In this document: positions 22,586 through 61,803 of the stretch, one piece after another
How the letters are laid out: every line of letters begins with the position of its first letter
How positions within the stretch are numbered: position 1 is the stretch's first letter
Source: Chryseobacterium gleum
GTDB lineage: Bacteria; Bacteroidota; Bacteroidia; Flavobacteriales_D; Crocinitomicaceae
Direction: 5' to 3'
Length of the DNA stretch: 64,000 bases
NCBI GenBank assembly: GCA_945897805.1
Contig: CAMDFX010000011.1
Span: 1-64,000 of the forward strand
Made by a program: the position numbers and the translations under genes
Notes under the pieces: generated by a model
The model's database searches: none
Seen by the model: only the letters and a program-made list of their open reading frames with translations
What the model was told of the DNA's origin: nothing

Positions 22586-24376
22586 CTATCTCAACCAATA
22601 ATTGCGCAATTTCAAAGTTTTTTCGTTGTTGTCGAACGTCATTTTGTACGTTGGTCGTTCGTAACTTCCCATGATTGCTTTTACCTCCAACAAAACATCG
22701 TCGCGAGAAATCAAAAGATTGATTGATTCTCCTAGAGTTAATCCTGCGAAAATTCCATCCAAATCTCCTGCTTCAACACGGTAACCATTGAAACCAATCA
22801 CTTCATCATTGACGCTCAAACCAGCATTTTCAGCAGCAGAATTAACGCGAATTCCTTTCACCATTGCTTTTCCATTCGATTGAGAAAAACTTGCGCCAAA
22901 AGATGGTTTTGCATTACCAATGTATTCAACTTTCAATCCAACAGGTGCAAAAATTGATTTGTAATCAGGCACTTTGGTATCGTTGACATAATCTCTGAAA
23001 AATGCCGACATGTCTTCTTCCATGAAGTCGCTCAGTGCTTTTTGAAATTCAGCTTCAGAAAAACCACGATTGAGTTTTTTGTAGAAATCTTGATACAATT
23101 TTTGCATGAAATCATCCAAGGATTTTTTGCCATTGAATTTGGTGACAATTTTAGCATCCAAAACCGCTGCAAGCAAGCCTCCGCGGGAATAATAAGTCAT
23201 TGTTGTATTGGCAGAATTTTCATTTGGTCGGTAGCTTTTGATCCAAGCGTCAAAACTTGCATGTGCCACAGGTTGAACGCGTGAACCTTCAGAACCTTCC
23301 ACATAATTCAAACCGCTCAACACTTTTTGAATGTATTGTTCCTGCGTGTAATAGCCTGCGCGAAGCAATAACAATTCATCGTAATAAGAAGTAAAACCTT
23401 CCATCACCCATAGCATTGATGTGTAATTTTCTTCATCGTAATTGAAAGGTCCTAATTCTACTGGTCGAATGCGTTTTACATTCCATAAATGGAAATATTC
23501 ATGCGCAACCAATGATAAAAAACCGATATATTCGCTTCCTTGATACGTCCAACGATTGACGCTCAATGTAGTGGAATTGATATGTTCCAATCCTCCTTGA
23601 CCATCAACGACATTGTGAATGATGAACAAATATTCCTTATTCGGATTTTCACCAATGACTTGCGTTGCAGTGGCAGTAATTTTTGCCATGTCTTTTTTGA
23701 GTTGTTCCACGTCAAAATTCCCATCGCCATACATCGCCACGCGGTGATTTACACCTGCCGATTGGAATGAAAATTCAATGTGATTTCCGATTTCGATTGG
23801 GCAATCTACCAATTGGTCATAATTTGCAAACTCGAAAGTTTCAGCGCCATCACCGGCCATTCCTTCTTTCGCTTTTGGAAGCGCAGTAGAAATCTTTTTG
23901 AAACCTGAATAAGGATAAACAATCAGTTTTCCTTTGTTTTCTTGCTGATTTTCCACGTACATAAAAACGCCAGTTCCACTCACATATCCGTGTGTTAAAT
24001 CTAAAAAACTGGTTCTAACACTCAGTTCAAAGGAATAAACTTCATATTTTACTTTGACACTTTTGGCATTTCCCTTTTGGATTTTCCAAGTGTTTTTATT
24101 CGTTTTTTGAACGGTTAAAGCATTTCCTTTTTCGTCAAAAGCCTTTACCAAGTTTACATTTTTAGCAAACTCTCTTACCAAATAGGAGCCAGGTGCCCAA
24201 ACGGGCATTTTTACTTCTAATTCAGCTGCTTTGTAATCTTCAATCAGCATTTCTACCTCGAAATAATGATTTTGCGGCTTGGGCATTTTCAGCGAATACT
24301 GAATGTTCATTGCGTTAACGGAGGAAAATCCAGATAAAACAAGCAGGATAAAAAGGGCGAAAATATTTTTGCGCAT
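22586..24376 (-). CDS. M61 family metallopeptidase with PDZ domain (glycyl aminopeptidase-like)
   Basis: 596 aa from the ATG at 24376 (MRKNIFALF); an upstream TTG is unnecessary. Signal peptide about residues 1-22. The N-terminal beta domain is followed by the zinc site HEYFHLWNVKRIRP (HExxH), with a distal Glu in WVMEGFTSYYDE, the M61 pattern. A PDZ domain occupies about residues 490-570 (GIRVNSAAENAGLSVNDEVIGFNG). It is an exported aminopeptidase. A minus-strand TATCTTTG box at 24394-24401 lies 17 bp before the start. Confidence 0.92.
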   Translation of the reverse strand: MRKNIFALFILLVLSGFSSVNAMNIQYSLKMPKPQNHYFEVEMLIEDYKAAELEVKMPVWAPGSYLVREFAKNVNLVKAFDEKGNALTVQKTNKNTWKIQKGNAKSVKVKYEVYSFELSVRTSFLDLTHGYVSGTGVFMYVENQQENKGKLIVYPYSGFKKISTALPKAKEGMAGDGAETFEFANYDQLVDCPIEIGNHIEFSFQSAGVNHRVAMYGDGNFDVEQLKKDMAKITATATQVIGENPNKEYLFIIHNVVDGQGGLEHINSTTLSVNRWTYQGSEYIGFLSLVAHEYFHLWNVKRIRPVELGPFNYDEENYTSMLWVMEGFTSYYDELLLLRAGYYTQEQYIQKVLSGLNYVEGSEGSRVQPVAHASFDAWIKSYRPNENSANTTMTYYSRGGLLAAVLDAKIVTKFNGKKSLDDFMQKLYQDFYKKLNRGFSEAEFQKALSDFMEEDMSAFFRDYVNDTKVPDYKSIFAPVGLKVEYIGNAKPSFGASFSQSNGKAMVKGIRVNSAAENAGLSVNDEVIGFNGYRVEAGDLDGIFAGLTLGESINLLISRDDVLLEVKAIMGSYERPTYKMTFDNNEKTLKLRNYWLR

Positions 24377-24393
24377 AATCAAATTTTAGTTTT

Positions 24394-24401
24394 CAAAGAT
24401 A
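24394..24401 (-). promoter_or_regulatory. Putative -7 box of the M61 peptidase gene
   Basis: TATCTTTG on the minus strand, 17 bp before the ATG at 24376. No TTTG at the -33 distance was found. Confidence 0.45.
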
Positions 24402-24469
24402 ATAAAAGGGATGAAGAACGAATGAAGTTTTGCCAATTGTTGATGCAATCATTTTAAAAATTCTAATCC

Positions 24470-25735
24470 TCAATAACCAAGTGAAGCCAATGAAATCACA
24501 TTGATTCCGTCATTTCGTTTGTAACTAATACCAGTACCTGTGATTACATTCAATGAAATCAATTTTGATCTGCTTGAATCACTTAAAACAGCTGTAAATT
24601 TGAGCAGGTTTTTAGCCGCGTCTTCAATTTGACCAGTACCTAGTTTAATTTCAAAAGCACAGCATTCTCCTGTGTATTTTTGAACGATTGCATCAACCTC
24701 TAATCCACTGGAATCATAATAATGATAAACCTTTGCGTCATTCGCCTGTGCATATACTCTGAGGTCATGCACGACCATCGATTCAAATAGAAAACCTGTA
24801 AATTTTAAATCATTCAACAATGCCTCTTTGCCAAGTCCAAGGGCTGCAACAGCGAGCGAAACATCTGAAAAGTGACGTTTTGAAGATTTCCGTAAAGTTG
24901 CGGAAGAACGAATGTGTGTGTTCCATACAGGTTGATCTTCAACAATCATCAAACGAGCCAAAACTTCTAAGTAATCGTATATGGTAGGACGTGAAATATC
25001 ACTGTTTTCGTTTAATTTCATGTCTTTTTCCAAGACTGTAATGTCAGCTGTAGTTGCAGTATTTCTAGCAAGCGTGCGTAAAAGACTTCGAACTTTTGCT
25101 GGATTTCGTTTTATTTCAGATACACGGCTCATATCCACTTCTGTCAGTAAATCAATATATGCGCGATTTATTTCGAGTGCTTGCGAAATATTTTTCTTCA
25201 GCAATGCTGGAAAACCGCCTTTCATGATGCGCAGTATAATCGTTTCGATATCTGTGGGAGCATCATTCGTTGTTTGATCTTTGCCCTCAAGTAAACGACC
25301 TAAACTTATTTCTCCAGAAGAATATCCCAACTCCTGCCAGCTCATGGTGCGCATATCTAAAACCGTAAATCTGCCAGCACCCGAGTGAATTTTTGCATCT
25401 TCAGCGGGATTAGCAGAACCCGTTAAAATAAATTGAGCGACGTCATTGCGCTCATCCACTTCATGGCGGACATAATTCCATATTTTAGGAAATTCTTGCC
25501 ACTCGTCAATCAACCGCGGAACAGCACCGATTAGTATGCGTTGAGGTGCGGTTTCCATCAACAATTTTATTTGTTCATCTTGATCAAAAGAGACCACACT
25601 TGATGCAACTTGTTTTGCCGATTTCGTTTTACCACAAGCTTTCATTCCCCTTATCAATAATGCTCCAGAGGCGTCTAGTTTTTTGCGCATTTCAATATCT
25701 GAAATACGTTCTGTGTAGTCTGCTGCTTTTGCCAT
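24470..25735 (-). CDS. AAA (AAA_14) plus DUF4143 ATPase, array-associated copy A
   Basis: 421 aa. Walker A is RGMKACGKTKSA (about residues 28-37), Walker B is PRLIDEWQE (about 75), and FILTGSANP is the sensor segment. A winged-helix-like stretch (SRPTIYDYLEVLARLMIVE, about 245-265) follows. The DUF4143 C-terminus ends in E-x-D and E-x-K positions (GLEVDAIVQ, CAFEIKLG, about 340-365) that resemble a PD-(D/E)xK nuclease core. The family is abundant in bacteria and archaea with no settled function. The start is the ATG at 25735. The 5' side is occupied by a TATATTTG box and then eleven 23-bp repeats. Not closely similar to copy B at 32692-33843 outside the shared motifs. Confidence 0.88.
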   Translation of the reverse strand: MAKAADYTERISDIEMRKKLDASGALLIRGMKACGKTKSAKQVASSVVSFDQDEQIKLLMETAPQRILIGAVPRLIDEWQEFPKIWNYVRHEVDERNDVAQFILTGSANPAEDAKIHSGAGRFTVLDMRTMSWQELGYSSGEISLGRLLEGKDQTTNDAPTDIETIILRIMKGGFPALLKKNISQALEINRAYIDLLTEVDMSRVSEIKRNPAKVRSLLRTLARNTATTADITVLEKDMKLNENSDISRPTIYDYLEVLARLMIVEDQPVWNTHIRSSATLRKSSKRHFSDVSLAVAALGLGKEALLNDLKFTGFLFESMVVHDLRVYAQANDAKVYHYYDSSGLEVDAIVQKYTGECCAFEIKLGTGQIEDAAKNLLKFTAVLSDSSRSKLISLNVITGTGISYKRNDGINVISLASLGY

Positions 25736-25757
25736 TTTGAATCAGTTTTTTTTGATG

Positions 25758-25765
25758 CAAATATA
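25758..25765 (-). promoter_or_regulatory. Putative -7 box of ATPase gene A
   Basis: TATATTTG on the minus strand, matching TAnnTTTG, 22 bp before the ATG at 25735. The first repeat unit begins six bases upstream, so the normal -33 position falls inside the array and no TTTG is present there. Confidence 0.55.
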
Positions 25766-25771
25766 AGCTTA

Positions 25772-26024
25772 TTTTACATATTAAAGCTAGTTTATTTTAC
25801 ATATTATATGGTTTTCATTTTACATATTGTAAATCAATTACTTTACATATTGTAAACTATTTATTTTACATATTAAATTGGTTTTATTTTACATATTATA
25901 AGTGTTTTACTTTACATATTATAAGTGTTTTACTTTACATATTATAAGTATTTTACTTTACATATTGTAAGCTTTTTACTTTACATATTGTAAGTGTTTT
26001 ACTTTACATATTGTGAGGTTGCTC
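25772..26024. repeat. Tandem array A: eleven 23-bp units upstream of ATPase A
   Basis: The core (C/T)TTTACATATT starts at 25772, 25795, 25818, 25841, 25864, 25887, 25910, 25933, 25956, 25979 and 26002. The period is exactly 23 bp with no indel. The 10-bp core is invariant, while the other 12 bases vary. Units 6-8 are almost identical, and the end units are most diverged. Units 3 and 4 contain the palindrome TTTACATATTGTAAA (arms TTTACA and TGTAAA). Units are contiguous without spacers, so this is not CRISPR. It looks like an iteron or multi-operator array for a dyad-binding protein. Confidence 0.95.
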
Positions 26025-26036
26025 TGCATGTTTTGG

Positions 26037-26075
26037 TATTAAATCGAGCAAACTAGTTCTCAGGCTCAGTTCAAA
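26037..26075 (-). pseudogene. Short relic resembling the neighbouring M61 peptidase gene
   Basis: On the minus strand this 39-bp piece reads FELSLRTSLLDL, against FELSVRTSFLDL inside the M61 gene (about 23994-24032). The DNA matches at 31 of 39 positions, and several differences are synonymous. The similarity stops abruptly on both sides; array A starts 13 bp beyond it on the left. It may be a remnant of a duplicated M61 gene lost when the array-ATPase module arrived, or a coincidence of short length. Confidence 0.4.
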
Positions 26076-26151
26076 AAAGTGATGGAGTTTTAAGAATTAA
26101 AAGTTGGATTGATATTCATTTATCAGGGCTAAAAAATCGTCTCTGTTTCGC

Positions 26152-26202
26152 ATTATAATCCGCCAAAACTCAATAAAAAACATAGTTTTGGCGGATTATA
26201 AT
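26152..26202. repeat. Perfect 19-bp inverted repeat (hairpin or element end)
   Basis: ATTATAATCCGCCAAAACT (26152-26170) and AGTTTTGGCGGATTATAAT (26184-26202) are perfectly complementary around a 13-base A-rich loop, with GATTTTTTT after it on the plus strand. No plus-strand gene lies to its left, so it is not an obvious terminator. It could be a bidirectional barrier, a MITE-like relic or a binding site. The rest of 26025-26278 shows no gene. Confidence 0.75.
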
Positions 26203-26278
26203 TGATTTTTTTAATGTTGAATTGAATATTTTTTTGAGTTAATAGTAATTTTCAAAAACTACTTTGAATTAATTTAGC

Positions 26279-26956
26279 TTATTCTAAAATGTTAAGTTTA
26301 AAATTGATTCTATCACGCCACAGAATATCAAAATAAATGGGGTGATCGATTTTACTTTCATTAGCAATACTTGCCAAATGGTTTTGAATACTATCATAGT
26401 GCTCCTTTTTCTTGATACTTAAAAAACCAGCATTTGCTTTTAATTCAAATTTTTTGCGCTCATTATAAGTGAATAAACAGGAAGAATTTAAAATAAATGA
26501 ATCTAGAGGAACGCGCAATAAATGAATTAATTGCTGACGGTAATTACTCAATTCATTTGAAACAAGAACTACATGCTCAAGTATCAAATCAATTATTTTT
26601 CTTACTGCATTGTAATTGGAGAGTATTTCTGGTCTTACGTTTTTGGAAAGTTCTTTTTTTAGCGTTTGCTCCAATTCATTGCTCAACAAATCAAAATCTT
26701 TAGCACATGTACATTTTGAAAGCCCCTTGGTAATTGAATCTTTCGAATTGATTAAAAAATAATTAATAATCTCTTTCGGGCCACTTTTGTTGACATCAAT
26801 TCTGTGAAATGCCCGAAGCGTATTTCCCGAAATGATGCTTTTGGCTAACGTATCATAATCTATGGGTTTACTAGCGTTTAGCATGATGCACTCGCCAATT
26901 TCTTGAACTTCTTGGAAGGTGCATTTTCTACCTTTTACAATACCTATTGTATTCAT
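26279..26956 (-). CDS. Hypothetical protein (225 aa) in the accessory island
   Basis: 225 aa, mostly helical and soluble, starting MNTIGIVKGRKCTFQEVQEI. It has clustered cysteines (KCTCAKDFD) and a Lys-rich C-terminus. No signal peptide, membrane helix or recognised motif. It lies 15 bp downstream of the stop side of the YD-like gene in the same direction, so the pair is probably co-transcribed. Codon use is more AT-rich than the core genes, consistent with acquired DNA. Confidence 0.6.
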   Translation of the reverse strand: MNTIGIVKGRKCTFQEVQEIGECIMLNASKPIDYDTLAKSIISGNTLRAFHRIDVNKSGPKEIINYFLINSKDSITKGLSKCTCAKDFDLLSNELEQTLKKELSKNVRPEILSNYNAVRKIIDLILEHVVLVSNELSNYRQQLIHLLRVPLDSFILNSSCLFTYNERKKFELKANAGFLSIKKKEHYDSIQNHLASIANESKIDHPIYFDILWRDRINFKLNILE

Positions 26957-26971
26957 TTTGTTGAAGCTTAC

Positions 26972-28864
26972 TTATTCAAAAATCATTTTTTCAGTGTTGT
27001 AAAAAACCTCTTTACCTTGAATGTTATAAAAGCGTTTAATACTGCAGAAAACACAATTTTCTTCAAATTTTGAAAACACTATTCTATGAACTACACCTGT
27101 GAAATCAGTTGTCTTACCATTCTCATCGAAATATGAAATTTCAGTAAGAATATTATTTTTATCATACTTTCTTTTTTCAGAACTAACGATCTTGTCTTCA
27201 TTGTAATAATCGTATATATTCTTTTCAATAAAGTTGTCTTTATTGTCATATTTTATGATTATTCTTTTTGTAGAAGCATCAACACGACCAAGCCCCCAAG
27301 GATAAGTAATATGACCCTTAAGTTGTTTTTCTTCTTTAGGATTATCTATCGTTCTCTCAACCAATAACCCTTTGTGGTATGTATACTTTACGGTACTCTG
27401 TAGTTCATTTTTATCATTGTATCTTTTATATTCAATTTCTAAAGTCTCATTTAAAGTGTCATATTTTTGTTTTTCAGCATATTTTTCAATATATTCATCA
27501 TCATAGTCTAAGCCAGGTTCATATTTACTTACATAATAATGCTGAATTAATTTTTTATTTACATCAAAGTAATATTTATCCCAAGTTATATGAGAAGCTC
27601 CTGAACTGTATCTGTTTAAATAGTTTGAGGTATCAAAATCAACCATATAAGTGTCCAAGGAATCTCTGTTCAGCAAAAGAGAATCATAATCTAGAGGTAG
27701 ATAATTTCTTCTATTATTATCTAAACGCATTTCAACAGAAGAAATTTCCAGTTTCTGATTATTCATAGGACCTACTGTATTTATGGAAGTCAAACGATTT
27801 TTTTCATCCAGTTCTATATTACCATATTCGACAAGTTCATTATTCTTACCTCTACTTTCTTTTTCAATACAAATGCCAAAATTATTGTATTTATATGTGT
27901 TCTTATAGATTAGTTTGCCAACTAAATCATAATTATTATCTTCAATTAATTGTCCACTATTGTTATACAAATAACTATATAAATAACCATATAAATATCC
28001 TGACAAATTCGTTTTTTGAACTAATTTTCCTTCATCATTGTAAATATATTTTGTCCATCCTGCAAATTCTTTTGTGTCCAGGGAAAACGAAGAATCAACA
28101 ATTAATTTACCATTTTGGTAAAAGTACTTAGTTGAATTCCAATCATCTATAATGCTTTCAACACATAGATTTTGCGCATTATATTTCCATTCTTTTGAAT
28201 GATAAAAGCTGTTCTGACCTTTCTTTACTGGTCGATTATTTTTGTCAAAACATGCTATTTTAATTTTATTGTTTTTTTCATCATATTTGAATTCAATTAT
28301 GTTTGCTTGAAGATTATAAAAGTCATAATTATTAAATTCTATTTTAGTGATATTGCCTTTTTTATCATAAGTTGTGCTTGTTTGTAGGATATCGTTTTCA
28401 AATTTATCTATTGATCGTGATTTCAAAATTCTACCTTTATTATCACATAAATAATTAACAACTATATCATTATTAATACATCTTTGTAGAAATCCTTTTT
28501 TGTCATAAGAAAGTTTTAAATTATAACGATAATTATCATTGGTAATTGAGCTGATTTTACCATTTCTATATTCTACTTTATAATAATTAAAAGCAATAGA
28601 GTCTCTTTCAAAAGGCCCTATATGATACATATATTCAAATAAATAACTATTAGGGTTTAAATCATTTGCTACTTGATTTTTAAAAAAATAGCTGTTGGGA
28701 TAAAGAAAAAGTTCATGGTTAAAAATATTACCAACACCATATGTTGCTTTTGTTAATTCTAATTCGCTGTTTAGATAATAAAGATCTTTAAAATACTTAA
28801 TTTCAATTTTATTTTGAGCAAACGAAATAGAGGTAAGTAGAATAAATAATAGTGTTGTTTTCAT
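26972..28864 (-). CDS. Secreted YD/RHS-like repeat protein (630 aa)
   Basis: 630 aa with signal peptide MKTTLLFILLTSISFAQ. Beyond it the protein is built of many short Tyr/Asn/Lys-rich units of the form LxYDKKGxLxxxx, YKYNNFGICIEKES and YIYNDEGKLVQKT, matching the YD-repeat style of RHS-family and MORN-like exported proteins. The tract GYLYGYLYSYLYNN is a local expansion. No C-terminal T9SS sorting domain is seen. In Bacteroidota such proteins are cell-surface or secreted and of unknown function. Very AT-rich compared with core neighbours. Confidence 0.65.
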   Translation of the reverse strand: MKTTLLFILLTSISFAQNKIEIKYFKDLYYLNSELELTKATYGVGNIFNHELFLYPNSYFFKNQVANDLNPNSYLFEYMYHIGPFERDSIAFNYYKVEYRNGKISSITNDNYRYNLKLSYDKKGFLQRCINNDIVVNYLCDNKGRILKSRSIDKFENDILQTSTTYDKKGNITKIEFNNYDFYNLQANIIEFKYDEKNNKIKIACFDKNNRPVKKGQNSFYHSKEWKYNAQNLCVESIIDDWNSTKYFYQNGKLIVDSSFSLDTKEFAGWTKYIYNDEGKLVQKTNLSGYLYGYLYSYLYNNSGQLIEDNNYDLVGKLIYKNTYKYNNFGICIEKESRGKNNELVEYGNIELDEKNRLTSINTVGPMNNQKLEISSVEMRLDNNRRNYLPLDYDSLLLNRDSLDTYMVDFDTSNYLNRYSSGASHITWDKYYFDVNKKLIQHYYVSKYEPGLDYDDEYIEKYAEKQKYDTLNETLEIEYKRYNDKNELQSTVKYTYHKGLLVERTIDNPKEEKQLKGHITYPWGLGRVDASTKRIIIKYDNKDNFIEKNIYDYYNEDKIVSSEKRKYDKNNILTEISYFDENGKTTDFTGVVHRIVFSKFEENCVFCSIKRFYNIQGKEVFYNTEKMIFE

Positions 28865-28909
28865 GGTTTTAAGTTTAAAATTTTATTACTGAAAATAATT
28901 AAAGCTATT

Positions 28910-29416
28910 TTATAAGTTCTCCGGAACGAAAAGCACAATTTTTTCGTAAAAATAAGTTCCTAAATTTCCCAAATCGAAAGCAAAGCAGTGTATAAGACCA
29001 TCTTTCTCATCAATTGATATTGCTTTGTAGTATATTACTTCTGGCACATCTACATTTTTTGAGGTATTAATTGCCACATTTGAAACAGTTTCAACTTTTA
29101 ACGAGTAACAATCATCGAAACCCCTATCTTCCCTATAAAATGAACAGAATGCACCATCAATATGGTAATATTCGTTGTTATACTTCTTCAATTTGGCTTT
29201 GTAATCTATAATAACCTGAGCTTTTTCAGGAATAAAAGCCATAACTATTCCCAAAACTAGTGCTACAACAAGTCCACCAAGTCCACTTAGAAAAAGAAAA
29301 AAAAGAGAGTCTGAAATATCGTCTAAATCTATTTTTCTATTTTGTGCTTTTTCCCTTAAAGCTACTATCAAAAGTATTATTAGACACCCCCCAACTGCAA
29401 TGTAAATTGACCACAT
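28910..29416 (-). CDS. Small membrane protein (168 aa), unknown
   Basis: 168 aa with two hydrophobic helices (IYIAVGGCLIILLIVAL, residues about 4-20; and LFFLFLSGLGGLVVALVLGIV, about 38-60), then a soluble C-terminal domain with beta strands. No recognised family. 44 bp upstream of the YD-like gene in the same direction. Confidence 0.6.
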   Translation of the reverse strand: MWSIYIAVGGCLIILLIVALREKAQNRKIDLDDISDSLFFLFLSGLGGLVVALVLGIVMAFIPEKAQVIIDYKAKLKKYNNEYYHIDGAFCSFYREDRGFDDCYSLKVETVSNVAINTSKNVDVPEVIYYKAISIDEKDGLIHCFAFDLGNLGTYFYEKIVLFVPENL

Positions 29417-29450
29417 AATTTTAAGTGTATATTTTTTGCTGTTAATTTAT

Positions 29451-29987
29451 CTAGTCCTCAATTTTAAAATCTTTTGGTAAAATTCCTTCTAGATTGCATC
29501 GAGGTTTTAGCTTATCTTTAAGTTTTTTACATTTTGAAGCTAAGTTTTCGTCGCTTGGAAACCAATAGATTTTAAAGCGATTTAACATTGAGTTGTCTAA
29601 AATAGAAAAGTCATTCCAGTGGTTTTCTGCAAATAAGATTCGTTTTTCCGAAGTCATAAAACCAGTACTTTTTTCAAGACTTGAGGAGCTAAAATGTGAA
29701 TTTAAGATCTTTGATTGCTCAATAGTCTGTTTACTTAATTCATTAAAGCCAACATGATTCCCTCTTAAAGTAATGGTTTCTAATTGTCTTTTAATTCTTT
29801 CAATAGCATCTTGCTTGTCAGCGTGACCAATGTAAATCAGTTCATCTCTATAAGTAAGAAAAAAGATGCCTGGTGTTTCAAATGTTTCTTTAGAAAAATT
29901 TGGTGTTTCAAATTCCAAATTAAGCGGAAACGCTTGATTATCTGTTGTTTTTATCTCAAATAAATCGTTAGCAGGGAAGAAGTTCAT
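29451..29987 (-). CDS. Divergent GIY-YIG-like domain protein
   Basis: 178 aa from the ATG at 29987; the upstream TTG at 30011 overlaps a TACTTTTG -7-like box and is unlikely. The segment PGIFFLTYRDELIYIGHAD has the G-I-F, then Y-I-G spacing of the GIY-YIG nuclease fold. KRQLETITLRGNHVGF is a plausible place for the catalytic Arg, and a late Glu is in CNLEGILP. The match is partial, so nuclease activity is not assured. Divergent from the XRE regulator, which may control it. Confidence 0.5.
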   Translation of the reverse strand: MNFFPANDLFEIKTTDNQAFPLNLEFETPNFSKETFETPGIFFLTYRDELIYIGHADKQDAIERIKRQLETITLRGNHVGFNELSKQTIEQSKILNSHFSSSSLEKSTGFMTSEKRILFAENHWNDFSILDNSMLNRFKIYWFPSDENLASKCKKLKDKLKPRCNLEGILPKDFKIED

Positions 29988-30072
29988 AAATTTTGTAGTT
30001 TTGACAAACAAAAGTAACGCAACAGTTTCAAAAAAACTTTGCTCAAAATTTCCGATATTGAACTTTTAATTC

Positions 30073-30080
30073 TACATTTG
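30073..30080 (+). promoter_or_regulatory. Putative -7 box of the XRE regulator
   Basis: TACATTTG matches TAnnTTTG, 26 bp before the ATG at 30107. The -33 position reads TTTC rather than TTTG with a 20-bp spacer, a weak match. Confidence 0.4.
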
Positions 30081-30106
30081 AACTATTAATTCTTAAAATA
30101 CACAAA

Positions 30107-30454
30107 ATGATTCAGCAAGCAGAATTGAAATTGAAACAAATTCGGGAATTAAAAAACCTTACACAAGAGCACATTGCCACGCAATTGGGGCTGTCGACGC
30201 GCGCTTATTCGAAGATTGAGAGTGGAGAAACGCAGCTGACGATAAGCAGATTGAATGAAATATCCAAAATTTTAGAAATAGACCCGATTGAAGTGTTGGG
30301 TTTTGATCACCAACAAATTTTTAATAATTGCTCGCAAGAAGGAAATATTGGTATCAACCACATAAATATTCCTGAAAAACTTATTGAGCAATATGAAAAG
30401 CGCATTCAACAATTGGAAAGTGAAGTGGTATTTTTGCGTACGTTGGTGAAATAG
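30107..30454 (+). CDS. XRE-family HTH transcriptional regulator
   Basis: 115 aa. The HTH_3 domain (residues about 8-62) has LKQIRELKNLTQEHIATQLGLS and TRAYSKIESGETQLTISRL. A C-terminal coiled coil (EQYEKRIQQLESEVVFLRTLV) suggests a dimer. It is divergent from the GIY-YIG-like gene and has three palindromes at an exact 40-bp period 160 bp downstream, which could be its operators; that is inference. Confidence 0.9.
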   Translation: MIQQAELKLKQIRELKNLTQEHIATQLGLSTRAYSKIESGETQLTISRLNEISKILEIDPIEVLGFDHQQIFNNCSQEGNIGINHINIPEKLIEQYEKRIQQLESEVVFLRTLVK

Positions 30455-30614
30455 TTGGTTTTTCCTTGATGAAATCCTTTTGTCGAAAAAAACGAAATAC
30501 AAATCGAGAAAATTAGCGTTAGTTCTTTTCAGCGTCAAATAAATCTTTCACAAACTAAAATTTGTCTTACTAGTCCGAAATTTCTTTTAAAGAATAATTC
30601 ATCAAAAAGCGCCG

Positions 30615-30718
30615 TTTTTTCGTCTGCAGACGAAAAAAAGATAAGAAGTATCAATTTTTTCGTCCACAGACGAAAAAACCATCAAGAAAATCAATTTTTT
30701 CGTCTACAAAAGAAAAAA
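30615..30718. repeat. Three palindromes at exact 40-bp spacing
   Basis: T6-CGTC-TGCA-GACG-A6 at 30615-30638, T6-CGTC-CACA-GACG-A6 at 30655-30678 and a decayed third copy at 30695-30718 (T6-CGTC-TACA-AAAG-A6). Starts are 40 bp apart each time. The arms are T-rich on the left and A-rich on the right with no T-run beyond, so these are not intrinsic terminators. They sit between the stops of the XRE and the convergent membrane-protein gene. The rest of 30455-30750 is without a gene. Confidence 0.8.
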
Positions 30719-30750
30719 TTCCCTATTCGAATATTCAATTTTGATTCAAT

Positions 30751-31308
30751 TCAATCTATCAAAACTGATCGCTTCGCTCGCTGAATGATCCAATAAATCA
30801 GAATATTTAAAACAAAAACTAGCAAAGTGATTTTGTCAAAAGTGGTAGTATCTTCCATGAAATATCTCCAACGAAGAAAAAATACGATCATTCCTGCATA
30901 AACAAGCAATGGAATGAAAATGAAATAATTGAAAATTTTGTTTTTTCGCCAAATCAAAATTAAGCCGATGAAAATTGTTCCCCAACAAATAGCGCTGATT
31001 GAATGATATTTCAGCAACAAGTTTAAAAATTCATATGGTTGAAAACCAAGCAATTTTCCGCGTTCAAATATCAAAGCTTCCACGTCGATTTTCTTTTCTG
31101 TAAAAATCACTTCACGCATGGAAATACTAGCAAACCCGATTAGGTGCCAAGCTAAAAAGATGAACCAAATGAGGGTATTGCAATAAACGGTAACGCGCGT
31201 ATAAATGTCAGGTTTTTTGCTGCCGAAAATTAAATCACGCAGCTTCAATATCAGCGGTAAAGCGCTATTGAATTTCGTATGTTGCTCTAATTCTTCGTTC
31301 GTTTCCAT
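30751..31308 (-). CDS. Multi-pass membrane protein (185 aa), unknown
   Basis: 185 aa with four predicted membrane helices (around VTVYCNTLIWFIFLAWHLIG, ISAICWGTIFIGLILIW, FNYFIFIPLLVYAGMIVFF and ITLLVFVLNILIYWIIQ). Lys/Arg-rich C-terminus RAKRSVLID. No recognised family. The start ATG leaves a charged cytoplasmic N-terminus METNEELEQHTKF. Confidence 0.65.
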   Translation of the reverse strand: METNEELEQHTKFNSALPLILKLRDLIFGSKKPDIYTRVTVYCNTLIWFIFLAWHLIGFASISMREVIFTEKKIDVEALIFERGKLLGFQPYEFLNLLLKYHSISAICWGTIFIGLILIWRKNKIFNYFIFIPLLVYAGMIVFFLRWRYFMEDTTTFDKITLLVFVLNILIYWIIQRAKRSVLID

Positions 31309-31376
31309 AATTCTACAAAGTTACAAAACCGAAAACAATAACGATTAATTCTCAATCTTAAACCAAATAAACTTTA

Positions 31377-31400
31377 TCACACTGAGCCTGTCGAAGTGCT
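31377..31400. repeat. Dispersed short repeat (GCCTGTCGAAGTG type)
   Basis: CACTGAGCCTGTCGAAGTG is the short repeat family (reverse form CTTCGACAGGCTCAGTG) seen scattered between genes across many Bacteroidota. A small CACT/AGTG inverted end is visible. Confidence 0.55.
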
Positions 31401-31444
31401 CTTTTTTCCTTAAATTCGTCAAACATTTCAAAAGCAAAAAAGCT

Positions 31445-32320
31445 GTGATCAAAAAATATAAATTTCCAATTTCTCACAAGTTGATTAGTCTTTTGCGCGA
31501 CATCGATATCCGTGGGATTCGAAAATTGTCTGTTGTTTTGCCTCGCGTTTTATTGCCAGATTCAACTAAAATTGGTGCACACATTTTACAAACCAATCAT
31601 GGCTTTTTGATGAAAATTGATCCATCAAAAGATGCTGGCGTTGAATTGAGTTTATTTCAAACGGGAACGTATGAAAAAGGAACGCTTTATTTTATTGCAT
31701 CTTGTCTAAATCGAGGTGATTGTTTTATCGATATCGGCGCAAACATTGGTTTGATGTCCATTTTTGCTTCGCAATGCGTTGGAAATTCAGGGAAAATTTT
31801 AGCATTTGAAGCGCATCCAGAAACGCATCAATTATTGCAGGAAAATATTGCTTTGAATCACATTGAAAACATCGACACTTTCAATTTTGCGTTGGGAAAT
31901 GAAACCGGAAAAGCGACGATTTATGACAATTGGAATGTCAATCGGGGAGGAGCATCTTTGGTAATTCATTCTGAAAATTCGACAGGTTTTGTAGTGGACG
32001 TGAAAACTTTAGACGAAGTGATTCAAAATGATTTTCAACCCAAAATGATTAAAATTGATGTCGAAGGATTTGAATTTCAAGTGTTAAAAGGTGCTACAAA
32101 TACTATCAAAAATTGCAAACCAATTTTAATTATTGAATTTTCCGTTTCGCGCGAAAATCAGTACGATCCTTTCGAAATGATTGATTTTATTGAAAGTTTT
32201 GGATTTTATGAAATCTTTAAATTATCAGGAACCAAGGAACGAAAATCAAAATTGATTCAAATTAATTCTAGGGAAGAATTTCCGAATCACGATAATATTT
32301 TTTGTATTCCAAAATTTTGA
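31445..32320 (+). CDS. FkbM family methyltransferase
   Basis: 291 aa starting at GTG. FkbM methyltransferase fold: FIDIGANIGLMSIFAS is the SAM-binding motif I (about residues 95-110), GKILAFEAHPETHQLLQENIALN follows, and PKMIKIDVEGFEFQVLKGA and KPILIIEFS complete it. Such enzymes O-methylate sugars in polysaccharides or natural products. No SAM radical or transferase partner is adjacent. It sits in the accessory island. Confidence 0.85.
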   Translation: MIKKYKFPISHKLISLLRDIDIRGIRKLSVVLPRVLLPDSTKIGAHILQTNHGFLMKIDPSKDAGVELSLFQTGTYEKGTLYFIASCLNRGDCFIDIGANIGLMSIFASQCVGNSGKILAFEAHPETHQLLQENIALNHIENIDTFNFALGNETGKATIYDNWNVNRGGASLVIHSENSTGFVVDVKTLDEVIQNDFQPKMIKIDVEGFEFQVLKGATNTIKNCKPILIIEFSVSRENQYDPFEMIDFIESFGFYEIFKLSGTKERKSKLIQINSREEFPNHDNIFCIPKF

Positions 32321-32322
32321 TT

Positions 32323-32695
32323 ATGAAAAGTCTATTGCTTTTGATCCTAACCATTTCTGCGTCTTGCAATTTAATATCAGAAGCGATTGGTGTTGTTACA
32401 AACAAAACCTATAACGTTTACATTATTGAAACATGTTTAACAATTCCAATTGAAATTCAACATTTGACAAAAGAGAAGCGGTGATCTCAAAAAACAAAAA
32501 TTGAAAATCAAAGGCATGAAGAGAGGAACTAATCAGATTGATTATTATTTACCTGCAAATCAAGATGAACCGATTTTCACTTCTGTGCAGTCTGGCAAAA
32601 AATTAAGCATAGTTTTGCCTTCAATTGCGGCAACAAAAGAAGGATATATTGTGCTTTTTAGAGTTAGCCAGCGCGCAAAAAATAAGATTTTTTAA
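32323..32695 (+). pseudogene. Frameshifted small lipoprotein gene
   Basis: The first frame (32323-32484) gives 53 aa, starting MKSLLLLILTISASCN, a lipoprotein-like signal. It stops at a TGA. A second frame, open from 32468 and ending at 32695, continues a beta-rich protein (KIKGMKRGTNQIDYYLPANQ, FTSVQSGKKLSIVLP). The spans join cleanly by removing one A from the AAAA at 32469-32472, giving a protein of about 123 aa. It is either a real frameshift (decay or phase switching) or a sequencing error. The second piece overlaps the stop of the convergent ATPase B gene by four bases. Confidence 0.65.
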
Positions 32696-33843
32696 ATTTT
32701 TACGGTGTCATTCCAACTCACAATCATTTCCCTGGTTCTAATTTCGCTTTTATCTTGCGTGTTGAGTAAGTAATGTTTGAACTCAAGTGTTGAATCAAGA
32801 GAATCTAAGTAGTGCAATGATTTAATAAATTCACTTTTAACAGTTTGAGAAGATTTCATTTCAATGCATTGAATTTTCAATCCTCTTTCGATGATTAAAT
32901 CAATTTCGTTCCCATTGCTGTCTCGCCAGAAATAATAATTTTTGATTTCTCCCTTGTTTTTGTGGTTTTTGATGATATCCACAAGTGCATAATTTTCAAA
33001 AAGCGGACCTTTGTAATTGGAAGTAATCAGTTCTTCTTTGCTATCAATTCCAAGAAGATAGCAAACCAATCCCGAATCGTAAAAATACAGTTTGGGTGAT
33101 TTTACAATTCGTTTAGAAAAGTTTTTATGCCAAGGTTTCAGCGTGAAAGCGATGTAGCTCGTTTCCAAAATAGATAACCAACGTTGCACTGTTTTGAGGT
33201 CGATGCCTAAATCTTTGGAGATAGTATTCGCATTGAAAATTTGTCCAACGTGATGTGCGCAAATATTTAGAAATTTCCGAAAAGTGGATAAATCATGCAC
33301 GTTAACCATGCTGCGAACATCTCTTTCAATGTAAGTTTGAATATAGGAAGGGTAGAAATCAGCAGGTGAAATTTCTTTGTCAAATATCCGTGGATATCCA
33401 CCTTGAATGATTGATTCAAAAATATTTAGGTTTCTAACTTCTCTTAATTCTGCATGGCTCAACGGCAACAATTCAAGGATATAAACCCTTCCTGCTAAGC
33501 TTTGAGTTACTTTTTCTAACATCAAAAAATTCTGAGAACCACTTAAGATGTATTGGCCAGTTTTGCCTGATTCATCAACGATTTGCTGAATGTATGAAAA
33601 TAATTCAGGTGCATTTTGGGCTTCGTCTATAATTACTTTATCATCATAAGTATCCAAAAATCCTCTTGGATCTGTTTTTGCAAAGTAAAGCATATCAGGA
33701 TTTTCCATAGAAACATATCGATAGTCTGAAAATACCAATTTACTCAAGGTCGTTTTCCCAGATTGCCTCGGTCCTGTGAAGACCAAAACTGGAAATTTTT
33801 GAGCCATTTTTAATATTTTCTGATATGCAAATCTATGAATCAT
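32692..33843 (-). CDS. AAA (AAA_14) plus DUF4143 ATPase, array-associated copy B
   Basis: 383 aa. Walker A FTGPRQSGKTTL (about residues 22-32), Walker B KVIIDEAQNAP (about 69-79), sensor YILSGSQNF. A winged-helix-like segment (DLGIDLKTVQRWLSILE) follows. The DUF4143 C-terminus has NGNEIDLIIE and QCIEMKSS (about 305-330), the E-D and E-x-K pattern reminiscent of PD-(D/E)xK folds. The start ATG at 33843 lies four bases after a TATTTTTG box, giving a near-leaderless mRNA, and beyond that begins a nine-unit 22-bp array. The same layout as copy A with different repeat sequence. Confidence 0.9.
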   Translation of the reverse strand: MIHRFAYQKILKMAQKFPVLVFTGPRQSGKTTLSKLVFSDYRYVSMENPDMLYFAKTDPRGFLDTYDDKVIIDEAQNAPELFSYIQQIVDESGKTGQYILSGSQNFLMLEKVTQSLAGRVYILELLPLSHAELREVRNLNIFESIIQGGYPRIFDKEISPADFYPSYIQTYIERDVRSMVNVHDLSTFRKFLNICAHHVGQIFNANTISKDLGIDLKTVQRWLSILETSYIAFTLKPWHKNFSKRIVKSPKLYFYDSGLVCYLLGIDSKEELITSNYKGPLFENYALVDIIKNHKNKGEIKNYYFWRDSNGNEIDLIIERGLKIQCIEMKSSQTVKSEFIKSLHYLDSLDSTLEFKHYLLNTQDKSEIRTREMIVSWNDTVKI

Positions 33844-33847
33844 AAGA

Positions 33848-33855
33848 CAAAAATA
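33848..33855 (-). promoter_or_regulatory. Putative -7 box of ATPase gene B
   Basis: TATTTTTG on the minus strand matches TAnnTTTG, four bases before the ATG at 33843. The first array unit begins nine bases upstream and covers the -33 position. Confidence 0.55.
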
Positions 33856-33864
33856 ATACTTTTT

Positions 33865-34062
33865 ATGTAATTGTGGAATTTTATTTATGTAAATGTGGAA
33901 TAAGTTTCATGTAATTATGGAATATATTCTATGCAAATATGGGAAATAATTTATGTAATTATGGAATTTAATCTATGTAGTTATGGAATAAGTTCTATGT
34001 AATTATGGAATTTTACTTATGTAAATATGGAATAATCCTTATGTAATTATGGAATATTTTAA
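33865..34062. repeat. Tandem array B: nine 22-bp units upstream of ATPase B
   Basis: The core ATGTAATTATGGAAT (variants ATGTAAATGTGGAAT, ATGCAAATATGGGAA, ATGTAGTTATGGAAT) starts at 33865, 33887, 33909, 33931, 33953, 33975, 33997, 34019 and 34041. The period is exactly 22 bp without an indel, and the remaining bases of each unit are more variable. TTCTATGTAATTATGGAA across unit borders has partial dyad arms (TTC-AT and AT-GAA). Its sequence differs from array A, but the layout relative to the ATPase gene is the same. No spacers, so not CRISPR. Confidence 0.95.
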
Positions 34063-34199
34063 CAAAATGACAATTTATTACTTTTCAAAGTCAAATTAAA
34101 TATCAAATTACGCCATTTTGTCATTATCAATCCCTTGGCATAGTGATTGACTATATAATAAAGTCCGCAAATGGATCAAATTGTACTAAATTTAAAATT

Positions 34200-36086
34200 A
34201 TGAAAACAGGTCAAATTAATGTTCAAACGGAAAATATTTTTCCAATCATTAAAAAGTTCTTGTATTCAGACCACGAGATATTTTTAAGAGAGTTGGTTTC
34301 GAATGCAGTAGATGCTTCTCAAAAAGTTAAAGTGTTGGCTTCAACAGGCGAATTCAAAGGTGAAGTTGGCGATTTGAAAGTCGAAGTCGTTTTAGACAAG
34401 GAAGCAAAAACCTTGACAATTTCAGATCATGGAATTGGAATGACGAGTGATGAAATTGATAAATATATCAATCAAATCGCATTTTCTGGCGCTGAAGAAT
34501 TTGTAAAACAATACGAAGGAAAAGAAGGTGCAGAAAGTATCATTGGTCACTTTGGATTGGGTTTCTATTCTGCTTTCATGGTTTCTGAAAGAGTACAAAT
34601 CAGAACTTTGTCTCGCCATGATGGTTCGCAAGCGGTGCAGTGGGAAAGCAATGGTTCGCCAGAATATACTATCACAGATATTGAAAAAGCGGAAAGAGGA
34701 ACAGAGATTATTTTGTATATCAATGAGGAATCAATTGAGTTTCTGGAAAAAGCGCGCATTCAAGGAATTTTAGATAAATACTGTAAATTTTTGCCAATTC
34801 CCGTCATTTTTGGAACTAAAACGGAATATATCGATTCTCCAGAAGGTGAAAAAGACGACAAAGGAAATGTAAAACGTGTTGCGATTGATGTTGCAAATCA
34901 AGTGAACAATCCTTCACCAGCATGGACAAAAGCACCAATTGACTTGACAAAAGATGATTACAATGCTTTCTACAGAGAATTGTATCCAATGACTTTCGAA
35001 GATCCATTGTTTCACATTCATTTAAATGTAGATTATCCATTCAATTTGACAGGAATTTTATATTTCCCAAAAATCAAGGAAAATGTGGAGGTTCAGCGCA
35101 ATAAAATCAATTTGTATAGCAACCAAGTATTTATTACTGATAGCGTTGCAGAAATTGTTCCTGAGTTCTTGACTTTGCTTCACGGAGTTATTGATTCGCC
35201 AGATATTCCTTTGAATGTTTCACGTTCTTACTTGCAAAGTGATAGCAACGTTAAAAAGATTTCAAGCCATATTACCAAAAAAGTAGCCGATAAATTGGCT
35301 GAAATGTTTAAAAAAGACCGACCAGATTTTGAATCTAAATGGGAAGATTTGAAGATTTTTGTTGAATATGGAACACTTTCAGACGATAAGTTTGCGGAGA
35401 AATCTAAAGGATTTTCTTTGGTGAAAAACACGGAAGGAAAATACTTTACGATAGAAGAATACAAAGAGAAAATCACAGCATTACAAACCGACCAAGACGG
35501 AAAGATTATTGTACTTTACACCAATGATGCAGAAGCTCAATTTGGTTTTGTGAAAGCAGCAAAAGACCGTGGATACGATGTGCTGTCTTTAGATGGACCT
35601 TTGGTGCCACACTGGATTTCCAAAATGGAGCAAGAAGGTCTAAACTTAACTTTTGCAAGAGTCGATGCGGATACTTTGGATAAATTGATTAAAAAATCTG
35701 AGGAGATTCCATCTAAACTTTCAAAGGATGAAGAAGCGCAATTGCAAACTGTTTTTGAAGGTTCTGTAAACAAAGAGAAATTCAAAGTTGAATTTTCAAG
35801 CATGAACGAAACAGAAGCGCCAATTATTGTGACGCAGCCTGAATTTATCCGCAGAATGATGGAACAACAAAAAATGGGAGGCGGTGGCTTTTTCGGTGCT
35901 TTTCCTGAAACATATCAGCTGGTTGTCAATAGCAATCATCCGAAAGTGGCAGAATTGTTGAATTCTGACGACGCTCAGCGCGCTGACAAAGCAAAACAAT
36001 TGACAGATTTGGCTTTGCTTTCCCAAGGCATGTTGAAAGGGGAGGCTTTGAATCAATTTATTGAAAGAAGCATAGAATTGGTATAA
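34200..36086 (+). CDS. htpG: Molecular chaperone HtpG (Hsp90)
   Basis: 628 aa from the ATG at 34200 (MKTGQINVQTENIFP); the longer frame to 34143 adds residues not found in HtpG. N-terminal GHKL ATP site: FLRELVSNAVDAS, ISDHGIGMTSDEI and GHFGLGFYSAFMV. A middle domain and a C-terminal dimer domain follow. ATP-driven folding chaperone in the cytosol. A terminator follows. No CIRCE operator is seen upstream. Confidence 0.95.
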   Translation: MKTGQINVQTENIFPIIKKFLYSDHEIFLRELVSNAVDASQKVKVLASTGEFKGEVGDLKVEVVLDKEAKTLTISDHGIGMTSDEIDKYINQIAFSGAEEFVKQYEGKEGAESIIGHFGLGFYSAFMVSERVQIRTLSRHDGSQAVQWESNGSPEYTITDIEKAERGTEIILYINEESIEFLEKARIQGILDKYCKFLPIPVIFGTKTEYIDSPEGEKDDKGNVKRVAIDVANQVNNPSPAWTKAPIDLTKDDYNAFYRELYPMTFEDPLFHIHLNVDYPFNLTGILYFPKIKENVEVQRNKINLYSNQVFITDSVAEIVPEFLTLLHGVIDSPDIPLNVSRSYLQSDSNVKKISSHITKKVADKLAEMFKKDRPDFESKWEDLKIFVEYGTLSDDKFAEKSKGFSLVKNTEGKYFTIEEYKEKITALQTDQDGKIIVLYTNDAEAQFGFVKAAKDRGYDVLSLDGPLVPHWISKMEQEGLNLTFARVDADTLDKLIKKSEEIPSKLSKDEEAQLQTVFEGSVNKEKFKVEFSSMNETEAPIIVTQPEFIRRMMEQQKMGGGGFFGAFPETYQLVVNSNHPKVAELLNSDDAQRADKAKQLTDLALLSQGMLKGEALNQFIERSIELV

Positions 36087-61469: not shown

Positions 61470-61803
61470 TTTAAATAATTTAGGTTTTAAACCAAAACGG
61501 TCAACTCTATTTAGGAATCAAAAGTCTAATAAATATCCATCGAACTTTGGTTTTTTAATATTTTAAGAGCCAAGCTTCGTAAATGTAAGACTTGAATGTT
61601 CTTTGTAGCTTCTGAATGTTGCATAGAATATGATAACTTTAGGAAATCAGAAGTCTTAAAATCTTAATATCCTAAAATCTTAATATCTAATAAGTTTATT
61701 GTCTCAAGTCTAATATCTCAAGTCTAATATCTCAAGTCTAATGTCTAAAGTCTAAAGTCTAATGTCTAAAGTCTAATATCCTAGGTCTAAAGACTAATAG
61801 CTC
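61470..61803. repeat. Low-complexity AGTCTAA-type intergenic repeat region
   Basis: No gene. From about 61650 the sequence is made of imperfect tandem units such as TCTAATATCTCAAG and AGTCTAATGTCTAA, continuing to 61799. CCTAAAATCTTAATATC (61671-61687) is shared exactly with 11247-11263. Such tracts are common intergenic filler in flavobacteria. Confidence 0.75.

What the first reader, a model, noticed from the sequence alone, without database searches (positions are those of the whole stretch)
25736..26024. Eleven perfectly phased 23-bp repeats abut the promoter of a DUF4143 ATPase gene
Seen directly: eleven contiguous units with invariant core TTTACATATT at an exact 23-bp period and no indel. 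Some units complete the palindrome TTTACATATTGTAAA. The array starts 6 bp upstream of a TATATTTG box and replaces the normal -33 element of the ATPase gene at 24470-25735. End units are most diverged and central units nearly identical, as expected from expansion by slippage or unequal exchange. The palindromic core suggests cooperative binding by a dimer. Inference: the array is the control site of the ATPase, perhaps bound by its own winged-helix segment.
Basis: partly seen in the sequence, partly recalled or inferred. Interest (0 to 1): 0.82.

Follow-up and report, generated by a model that had tools for sequence, protein, structure and literature searches.

The report
Phased operator arrays of DUF4143 ATPases
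A common but untested family of candidate bacterial defence proteins seems to carry, in front of its genes, sets of evenly spaced DNA docking sites whose spacing follows the protein's lineage even where the letters of the sites have changed completely.

Summary
The array is real: eleven TTTACATATT cores at an exact 23-bp period, next to the -7 box of a DUF4143 ATPase gene. It is not a local oddity. The window's other DUF4143 gene has a 22-bp array, and 8 of the 11 full DUF4143 genes of this genome have one, each with its own sequence. Of 102 such genes in this and related genomes, 39 have a tandem array reaching within 170 bp of the start, against 3 of 295 ordinary genes. Periods cluster at 22-23 and 31-33 bp. 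On a tree of 108 ATPases whose arrays have these periods, the period changes 8 times (shuffled mean 45.6). Relatives of this ATPase in other genomes, plasmids and phage-collection records, from five phyla, keep the 23-bp period with unrelated units (30 of 34; 0 of 34 farther upstream). Many other members have one long palindrome instead. In the one site tested, gene and array are gained or lost together. The protein (PADLOC PDC-S01) folds as a STAND/NLR-like ATPase with a winged helix. Best reading: the ATPase binds its own phased sites and controls its own promoter. Binding and the sign of control are inferred, not shown.

The parts
25769..26014 (-). Tandem array: 11 units of 23 bp, core TTTACATATT (+ strand) / AATATGTAAA (gene strand)
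25758..25765 (-). TATATTTG, match to the Bacteroidota -7 box TAnnTTTG (consensus recalled), between array and start codon
   Evidence: sequence: box starts 4 bp after the proximal array end as called there; 24 of 39 arrays have such a box at -12..+25 of the array end against 16 of 714 background windows
24470..25735 (-). DUF4143 ATPase gene, 421 aa (AAA_14 + DUF4143; PADLOC PDC-S01)
25346..25705 (-). P-loop ATPase domain (residues about 11-130)
   Evidence: AAA_14 at 25-136; model
24866..25189 (-). Predicted winged-helix region (residues about 183-290), candidate DNA reader
   Evidence: secondary structure of the model; assignment as winged helix is my reading
24476..24808 (-). C-terminal PD-(D/E)XK-like domain (residues about 310-420); E346, D348, E362, K364 invariant
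   Evidence: invariant in 52 sequences; fold assignment inferred from motif and secondary structure; this part was barely tested
33855..34056 (-). Second array: about 9 units of 22 bp (consensus AATAATATTTATGTAATTATGG on + strand) in front of the other DUF4143 gene
32692..33843 (-). Second DUF4143 ATPase gene, 383 aa (PDC-S01)
   Evidence: model pLDDT 93.7

Best explanation
The array is the cognate operator of the ATPase encoded next to it. Copies of the ATPase (a STAND/NLR-like P-loop ATPase with a winged helix and a PD-(D/E)XK-like domain, PADLOC candidate defence protein PDC-S01) bind the units, most likely through the winged helix. The fixed spacing of two or three helical turns places neighbouring molecules in a constant geometry so that they bind cooperatively. 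The array abuts the promoter, so occupancy sets the gene's own expression, most likely as autorepression that keeps a potentially dangerous nuclease low. SHOWN here: the array, its promoter position, its enrichment in front of DUF4143 genes, the dependence of period on ATPase clade, conservation of unit or period without conservation of flanks, absence of shared neighbour genes, and one case of joint gain or loss. INFERRED: that the ATPase is the binder, that the winged helix reads the unit, cooperativity, and repression rather than activation.
For: (1) 8 of 11 DUF4143 genes of this genome have an upstream array, each of different sequence. (2) TRF arrays (period 18-50, score 80 or more) reaching within 170 bp of the start: 39 of 102 DUF4143 genes against 3 of 295 genes, and 3 of 123 genes with long intergenic upstreams, in 400 kb of the same genome. 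(3) Repeat lags of 21-23 or 31-34 bp, score 12 or more: 48 of 102 against 2 of 123; off-phase lags 25-28 or 36-38: 6 of 102 against 3 of 123. (4) Tree of 108 ATPases: 8 changes of period class, shuffled mean 45.6, 0 of 200 as low. (5) Finding's subfamily: top lag 23 or 46 in 30 of 34 relatives (22 in 3, 25 in 1); 0 of 34 in the next 220 bp upstream; 11 of 340 shuffles. (6) Cross-genus pairs 60-80% identical in protein: 70% of 69 pairs share a promoter-proximal match of score 16 or more, 0% in the far upstream; pairs without a BLAST hit 2% of 400. (7) TAnnTTTG next to the array end in 24 of 39 against 16 of 714 background windows, so in those the repeats lie upstream of the transcript. (8) No gene family shared by the flanks of 31 subfamily loci except between two pairs of close relatives (L161/L162, L259/L261), so the ATPase is the only common protein. 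(9) The unit is unique to this locus in the genome. (10) Gene and array absent together in G001 at the one site tested.
Against: No binding or expression data. A test for the protein segment that covaries with unit similarity beyond overall identity found nothing convincing: best partial correlation 0.15 at residues 217-232, and -0.09 to 0.06 for windows over the predicted recognition helix and wing. In the closest solved folds beyond archaeal ATPases (plant NLRs, CED-4) the winged-helix domain is, from general knowledge, part of the switch and not a DNA reader. About half the DUF4143 genes sampled have no array by these measures (63 of 102 by TRF; 122 of 271 without any lag of score 12). In one search, over all lags together, tandem signal was not enriched (21 of 80 against 23 of 123 controls at score 12); only the 22-bp class and the palindromes stand out. 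Three plasmid loci (L161, L162, L167) have an annotated HTH regulator gene directly upstream, a rival binder there. The controls come from one genome. The relatives were fetched by similarity and include near-copies, so genes are not independent.
Confidence: 0.7

Rival explanations
1. The array is part of how the gene moves or is recognised (an end, target or origin site bound by the ATPase-nuclease), and any effect on transcription is secondary, as with the TnsB sites at Tn7 ends.
For: Gene plus array behave as one block of about 1.3 kb at one site. Gene number per genome varies widely (0 to 19 in 30 relatives). The subfamily occurs on plasmids and in phage-collection records.
Against: The repeats lie on one side of the gene only: TRF on the window and on the own-genome loci shows no matching array at the other end. 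No recombinase gene is shared by the flanks. The arrays sit at the promoter in a regular manner.
Confidence: 0.1
2. The array is bound by an unrelated host regulator or nucleoid protein that silences foreign AT-rich genes.
For: Arrays in this genome are AT-rich. Some loci carry an HTH gene next door.
Against: Each paralogue in one genome has a different unit and the unit of this array occurs nowhere else in the genome. The period follows the ATPase clade across phyla, and GC-rich relatives have arrays too (for example L251, L264, L257).
Confidence: 0.09
3. The repeats act as RNA, as guide units (CRISPR- or TIGR-like) or as leader hairpins.
For: Many other members have strong palindromes close to the start codon, which could be hairpins if transcribed.
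Against: In 24 of 39 arrays the -7-like box lies between array and gene, so the array is upstream of the expected transcript. Units are near-identical and have no variable spacers. Rfam finds nothing at gathering thresholds in 24300-34200.
Confidence: 0.04
4. Neutral slippage: AT-rich promoter DNA that happened to expand.
For: Unit number differs between sister genomes (11, 12, 9) and the distal units are near-identical.
Against: Enrichment, promoter position and clade-specific period. Slippage explains how copies multiply, not why the period is kept while the letters change.
Confidence: 0.03

Closest known systems
ParA type Ia plasmid partition promoters (F, P1, P7)
   Same: An ATPase with a winged HTH assembles cooperatively on several repeated or inverted motifs in its own promoter and autoregulates (PMC8465637; abstract and section 3.4 read).
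   Different: ParA is a deviant-Walker ATPase of a two-gene partition operon with inverted hexamers 26-29 bp apart. Here a solo AAA_14-DUF4143 gene has direct repeats of fixed 22, 23 or 32-33 bp period, or one long palindrome, and no partner gene.
PADLOC phage defence candidate PDC-S01
   Same: Both window proteins match PDC-S01 models (E 3.1e-60 and 3.4e-103).
   Different: PDC-S01 is defined by protein profiles. In the passages seen of PMC12988326 it is called the fourth most common defence across prokaryotes, with experimental validation pending for most PDCs; 'promoter' and 'tandem' do not occur in its main text.
Archaeal STAND-type ATPases SSO1545 (2fna) and PABY2304 (2qen), and NLR proteins (RPP1, CED-4)
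   Same: Best structural matches of the modelled ATPase: Z 15.2 (2qen, rmsd 4.6, 255 aligned), 14.2 (2fna, rmsd 4.1, 250 aligned), about 12 for RPP1 and CED-4.
   Different: The matches cover residues about 2-330; the C-terminal PD-(D/E)XK-like part is barely covered. No upstream array is known to me for those genes (recalled; not searched here).
Iteron arrays of plasmid replication origins
   Same: Direct repeats of about 20 bp at helical phase, bound by a protein encoded next to them (recalled).
   Different: Here the neighbour is not a replication initiator, the locus is chromosomal, and the period differs by subfamily.

Membership tests
DUF4143 / AAA_14 ATPases (Pfam PF13635, PF13173) | Both domains above the gathering score | tested here: met
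   DUF4143 119 bits (cut-off 28.1), AAA_14 45.9 bits (27)
PDC-S01 (PADLOC) | Match to PDC-S01 profile | tested here: met
   PDLC04790, E 3.1e-60
PDC-S01 (PADLOC) | Protection against phage | not testable with these tools
   No assay; described as pending for most PDCs in PMC12988326 (passages)
STAND/NLR-type ATPase | NB - helical - winged-helix arrangement | tested here: met
   best Z to 2qen, 2fna, RPP1, CED-4 over residues about 4-300
STAND/NLR-type ATPase | C-terminal sensor repeats and ligand-driven oligomerisation | tested here: inconclusive
   Pfam lists only AAA_14 and DUF4143; oligomerisation was not modelled
PD-(D/E)XK nuclease | Conserved E..D..ExK residues on the core strands | tested here: met
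   E346, D348, E362, K364 invariant in 52 sequences, on strands 346-353 and 357-364; activity not testable
Autoregulated operator (ParA-like promoter) | Repeated sites overlapping or abutting the gene's own promoter | tested here: met
   24 of 39 arrays next to TAnnTTTG against 16 of 714 windows
Autoregulated operator (ParA-like promoter) | Protein binds its own operator | not testable with these tools
   Comparative evidence only
Type Ia ParA | ParA-type ATPase with a partner parB gene | tested here: not met
   AAA_14-DUF4143 protein, no gene family common to the flanks
CRISPR or TIGR guide arrays | Repeats separated by variable spacers | tested here: not met
   contiguous near-identical 23-bp units

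The most novel reading that the evidence does not exclude
The array is more than an operator: it is a DNA ruler on which a STAND-type ATPase-nuclease assembles into an ordered oligomer. Each subfamily's protein geometry dictates one spacing (22, 23 or 32-33 bp, that is two or three turns plus a fixed rotation), which is kept across phyla while the recognised letters drift freely. The loaded array may then be the resting, sequestered form of a nuclease that is released or re-armed when an invader changes its nucleotide state or competes for it, so that sensing and self-control use the same cis element.
Probability: 0.2. Interest if true: 0.92.

Novelty: new variant of a known kind. Interest (0 to 1): 0.78.

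Why it matters
PDC-S01 is reported among the most abundant candidate defence genes of prokaryotes but has no tested mechanism (passages of PMC12988326, PMC13356809). A cognate DNA site in front of many of its genes gives it a first molecular handle: a defined ligand, a predicted stoichiometry and geometry, a reporter and a way to pair each protein with its site. A repeat period that is conserved by protein clade while the repeat sequence turns over completely is unusual and directly testable, and it would link NLR-like ATPases to DNA-templated assembly.

Tried and rejected
AAA-ATPase_like (PF09820) as a control family: no matches in 30 genomes. DUF234 (PF03008) as a sister family: matches in only 6 of 148 genomes; some have short palindromes near the start by eye, not scored. 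Viral-contig search with the ATPase: no relative found. PDB by sequence: nothing credible (best E 0.3). NCBIfam: no family. Rfam over 24300-34200: none at gathering scores.

Segment-by-segment covariation of protein with unit sequence: inconclusive. In that test one locus (L250, the same gene as L141) was removed by hand, and pairs of 75% identity or more were left out.

Phylum-wide sample of best-scoring DUF4143 genes (26 genes): only 2 TRF arrays of score 80 or more and 5 of 26 by helical lags. Tandem arrays are therefore not universal; long palindromes are the commoner form there (inverted-repeat score 11 or more in 12 of 26 against 2 of 123).

Non-Bacteroidota genomes: 31 of 49 genes have an inverted repeat of score 11 or more, or a lag of 22, 23, 31-33, 44 or 46 bp at score 12 or more, against 10 of 123 controls under the same rule (1 further locus, L364, could not be read). 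Part of these 49 are the same genes as.

Subfamily of L009 across the phylum: top lag 32 or 33 in 22 of the 28 other readable loci, counted by me from the table (one locus gave no frame; several scores are low and several loci are near-copies).

Rows dropped; not every row was fetched (60 regions beside the loci given; several weak or partial rows, and some full ones such as G002:C16 and G004:C59, were left out). Plasmids: 15 of the 30 listed records (170 in all), chosen for diversity before their upstreams were seen. Phage collection: 4 of 6 records. Tree: 108 rows left from 118 genes with period class 22, 23 or 32 after removing near-copies and out-of-range lengths; 31 genes with other lags and 122 without a lag were not on it.

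Literature: eight searches ran. 'DUF4143' with 'tandem repeats': 0 papers; 'DUF4143' alone: 1 paper; 'PDC-S01': 3 papers. No description of these arrays was seen; subscription journals and preprints are largely outside the library.

Full report
WHAT IS THERE. The array is as described: eleven exact cores at 23 bp, in front of a 421-aa DUF4143 ATPase gene on the minus strand. A box TATATTTG lies between array and gene. The window holds a second, unreported example: nine 22-bp units in front of the DUF4143 gene at 32692-33843.

NOT CHANCE AND NOT LOCAL. The genome has 11 DUF4143 genes above the family cut-off and one fragment; 8 of the 11 have a TRF array upstream, with periods 22, 23, 32 or 33 and unrelated sequences. 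In 30 genomes (own plus relatives, 18 with a match) I read 102 genes. TRF arrays of score 80 or more reach within 170 bp of the start in 39 of 102, against 3 of 295 genes in 400 kb of the own genome, and 3 of 123 with at least 150 bp of intergenic DNA. Best periods were 22-23 (10 genes), 31-33 (23), 44 or 46 (4), 27 (1) and 38 (1) (list). Ungapped repeat lags give the same picture: lags of 21-23 or 31-34 in 48 of 102 against 2 of 123, off-phase lags in 6 of 102 against 3 of 123.

ARRAY SITS AT THE PROMOTER. Of the 39 arrays, 24 have TAnnTTTG starting between -12 and +25 of the proximal array end, against 16 of 714 windows of the same size farther upstream. In those the array lies upstream of the expected transcription start and would act as DNA. 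The remaining 15 have no such box there.

PERIOD BELONGS TO THE PROTEIN CLADE. I searched for relatives of this ATPase: 15 of 296 Bacteroidota genomes at E 1e-35 or better, own included, 170 plasmid records (15 read) and 6 phage-collection records (4 read). Leaving out the finding itself, 34 genes were scored. The strongest lag between 12 and 60 bp in the 220 bp before the gene is 23 in 27 and 46 in 3 (22 in three plasmid genes, 25 in one); in the next 220 bp upstream it is never 23 or 46 (0 of 34), and in shuffles 11 of 340. The hosts named are Actinomycetota, Bacteroidota, Bacillota, Chlorobiota and Pseudomonadota, and the units share no obvious sequence across them. The L009 subfamily keeps 32-33 bp in 22 of 28 other readable loci (my count). 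On a tree of 108 ATPases with period class 22, 23 or 32 there are 8 changes, against a shuffled mean of 45.6 (0 of 200 as low). Near-copies add to such clustering; strongly similar proteins had been removed first.

UNIT CONSERVED, FLANKS NOT. Cross-genus pairs with 60-80% protein identity share a promoter-proximal match in 70% of 69 pairs and a far-upstream match in none; 45-60%: 15% of 260 against 1%; no BLAST hit: 2% of 400. The closest relative in another genus (L061, 82% protein identity) keeps a 23-bp array with the same core and different surroundings. In two same-genus orthologues the proximal units are collinear and the distal block varies (11, 12, 9 units).

PALINDROMES AS THE OTHER FORM. 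Among 80 named loci related to the window's second ATPase, from many phyla and one archaeon, 34 have an inverted repeat of score 13 or more within 110 bp of the start, against 0 of 123 control upstreams (44 against 8 at score 11). By reading, 12 of the 80 have a strongest lag of 22 or 44 bp with score 20 or more (table); over all lags together there is no excess (21 of 80 against 23 of 123). By eye the 22-bp unit of the direct repeats (ATTCCATAATTACATAA) resembles one half of the palindromes (for example L126, L179), as if the same half-site were used in two arrangements; this was not tested formally. In 49 genes from 21 genomes reached through non-Bacteroidota loci, 31 meet a combined rule against 10 of 123 controls (partly the same genes).

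A ONE-GENE BLOCK. Flanks of 31 subfamily loci share no gene family except between two pairs of close relatives, so the only protein common to all arrays is the ATPase. For L004, the same-genus genome G001 matches both sides and lacks 1319 bp that hold nearly the whole gene, its array and 85 bp, with about 90 other bases in place. One site was tested; direction and mechanism are unknown.

THE PROTEIN. Both window proteins match PADLOC PDC-S01. The model of this ATPase (pLDDT 86.8) has a P-loop ATPase, a winged-helix region and a C-terminal domain whose E346, D348, E362 and K364 are invariant in 52 sequences, as in PD-(D/E)XK nucleases. Best solved relatives are PABY2304 and SSO1545 (Z 15.2 and 14.2), then plant NLRs and CED-4 (Z about 12). 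The C-terminal part was hardly covered in that comparison; Foldseek's hits to the CRISPR nucleases Cdn1 and Card1 have low TM-scores (about 0.2).

HOW IT PROBABLY WORKS. The encoded ATPase is the natural binder: each paralogue has its own unit, the unit is unique in the genome, the spacing follows the ATPase tree, and no other gene is common. Fixed spacing close to two or three helical turns fits neighbouring molecules on one DNA face with direct contact. The site abuts the promoter, and the palindromes of other members lie close to the start codon, which favours repression. The nearest studied parallel is ParA of type Ia partition systems, which binds repeated and inverted motifs in its own promoter through a winged HTH (PMC8465637, abstract and section 3.4). 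Against this: no binding data, the specificity segment could not be mapped, many members lack arrays, and three plasmid loci carry an HTH gene that could be the regulator there.

NOVELTY. Self-regulated operators and iteron arrays are known kinds. What I did not find in print is an operator array as a standing feature of DUF4143/PDC-S01 genes, with a period conserved by clade across phyla while the sequence turns over. I file it as a new variant of a known kind.

Noticed in passing
window 26152-26202: Inverted repeat with 19-bp arms (ATTATAATCCGCCAAAACT..AGTTTTGGCGGATTATAAT) beyond the distal end of the array. Its core is found in 5 of 365 loci: this place and its orthologues, and L069, where it lies in front of another DUF4143 gene. 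Possibly a relict operator of a lost DUF4143 gene.
   Followed up: partly
window 30610-30720: Three 40-bp repeats containing CGTCTACAGACG-like palindromes between an XRE-type HTH gene (30107-30454) and the gene at 30751-31308.
   Followed up: no
window 61692-61798: Tandem repeat of a 7/14-bp unit (GTCTAAA).
   Followed up: no
L306, L307, L309, L311: Genes of the related DUF234 family also seem to have short palindromes beside their start codons, by eye.
   Followed up: no
L002, 500 bp upstream of the gene: A decayed second copy of the promoter palindrome and gene start precedes the intact DUF4143 gene, as if left by a tandem duplication (seen).
   Followed up: no
genome G342 (of L236, titled Coxiellaceae): 30 DUF4143 matches in a 3.3-Mb genome.
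   Followed up: partly
L161, L162, L167: An annotated HTH regulator gene lies directly upstream of the array and ATPase on these Collinsella and Rhizobium plasmids.
   Followed up: partly
L010, positions 1-262: A second array (33-bp period, about 8 units) farther upstream of this DUF4143 gene, beside its own 32-bp array at 476-683.
   Followed up: no
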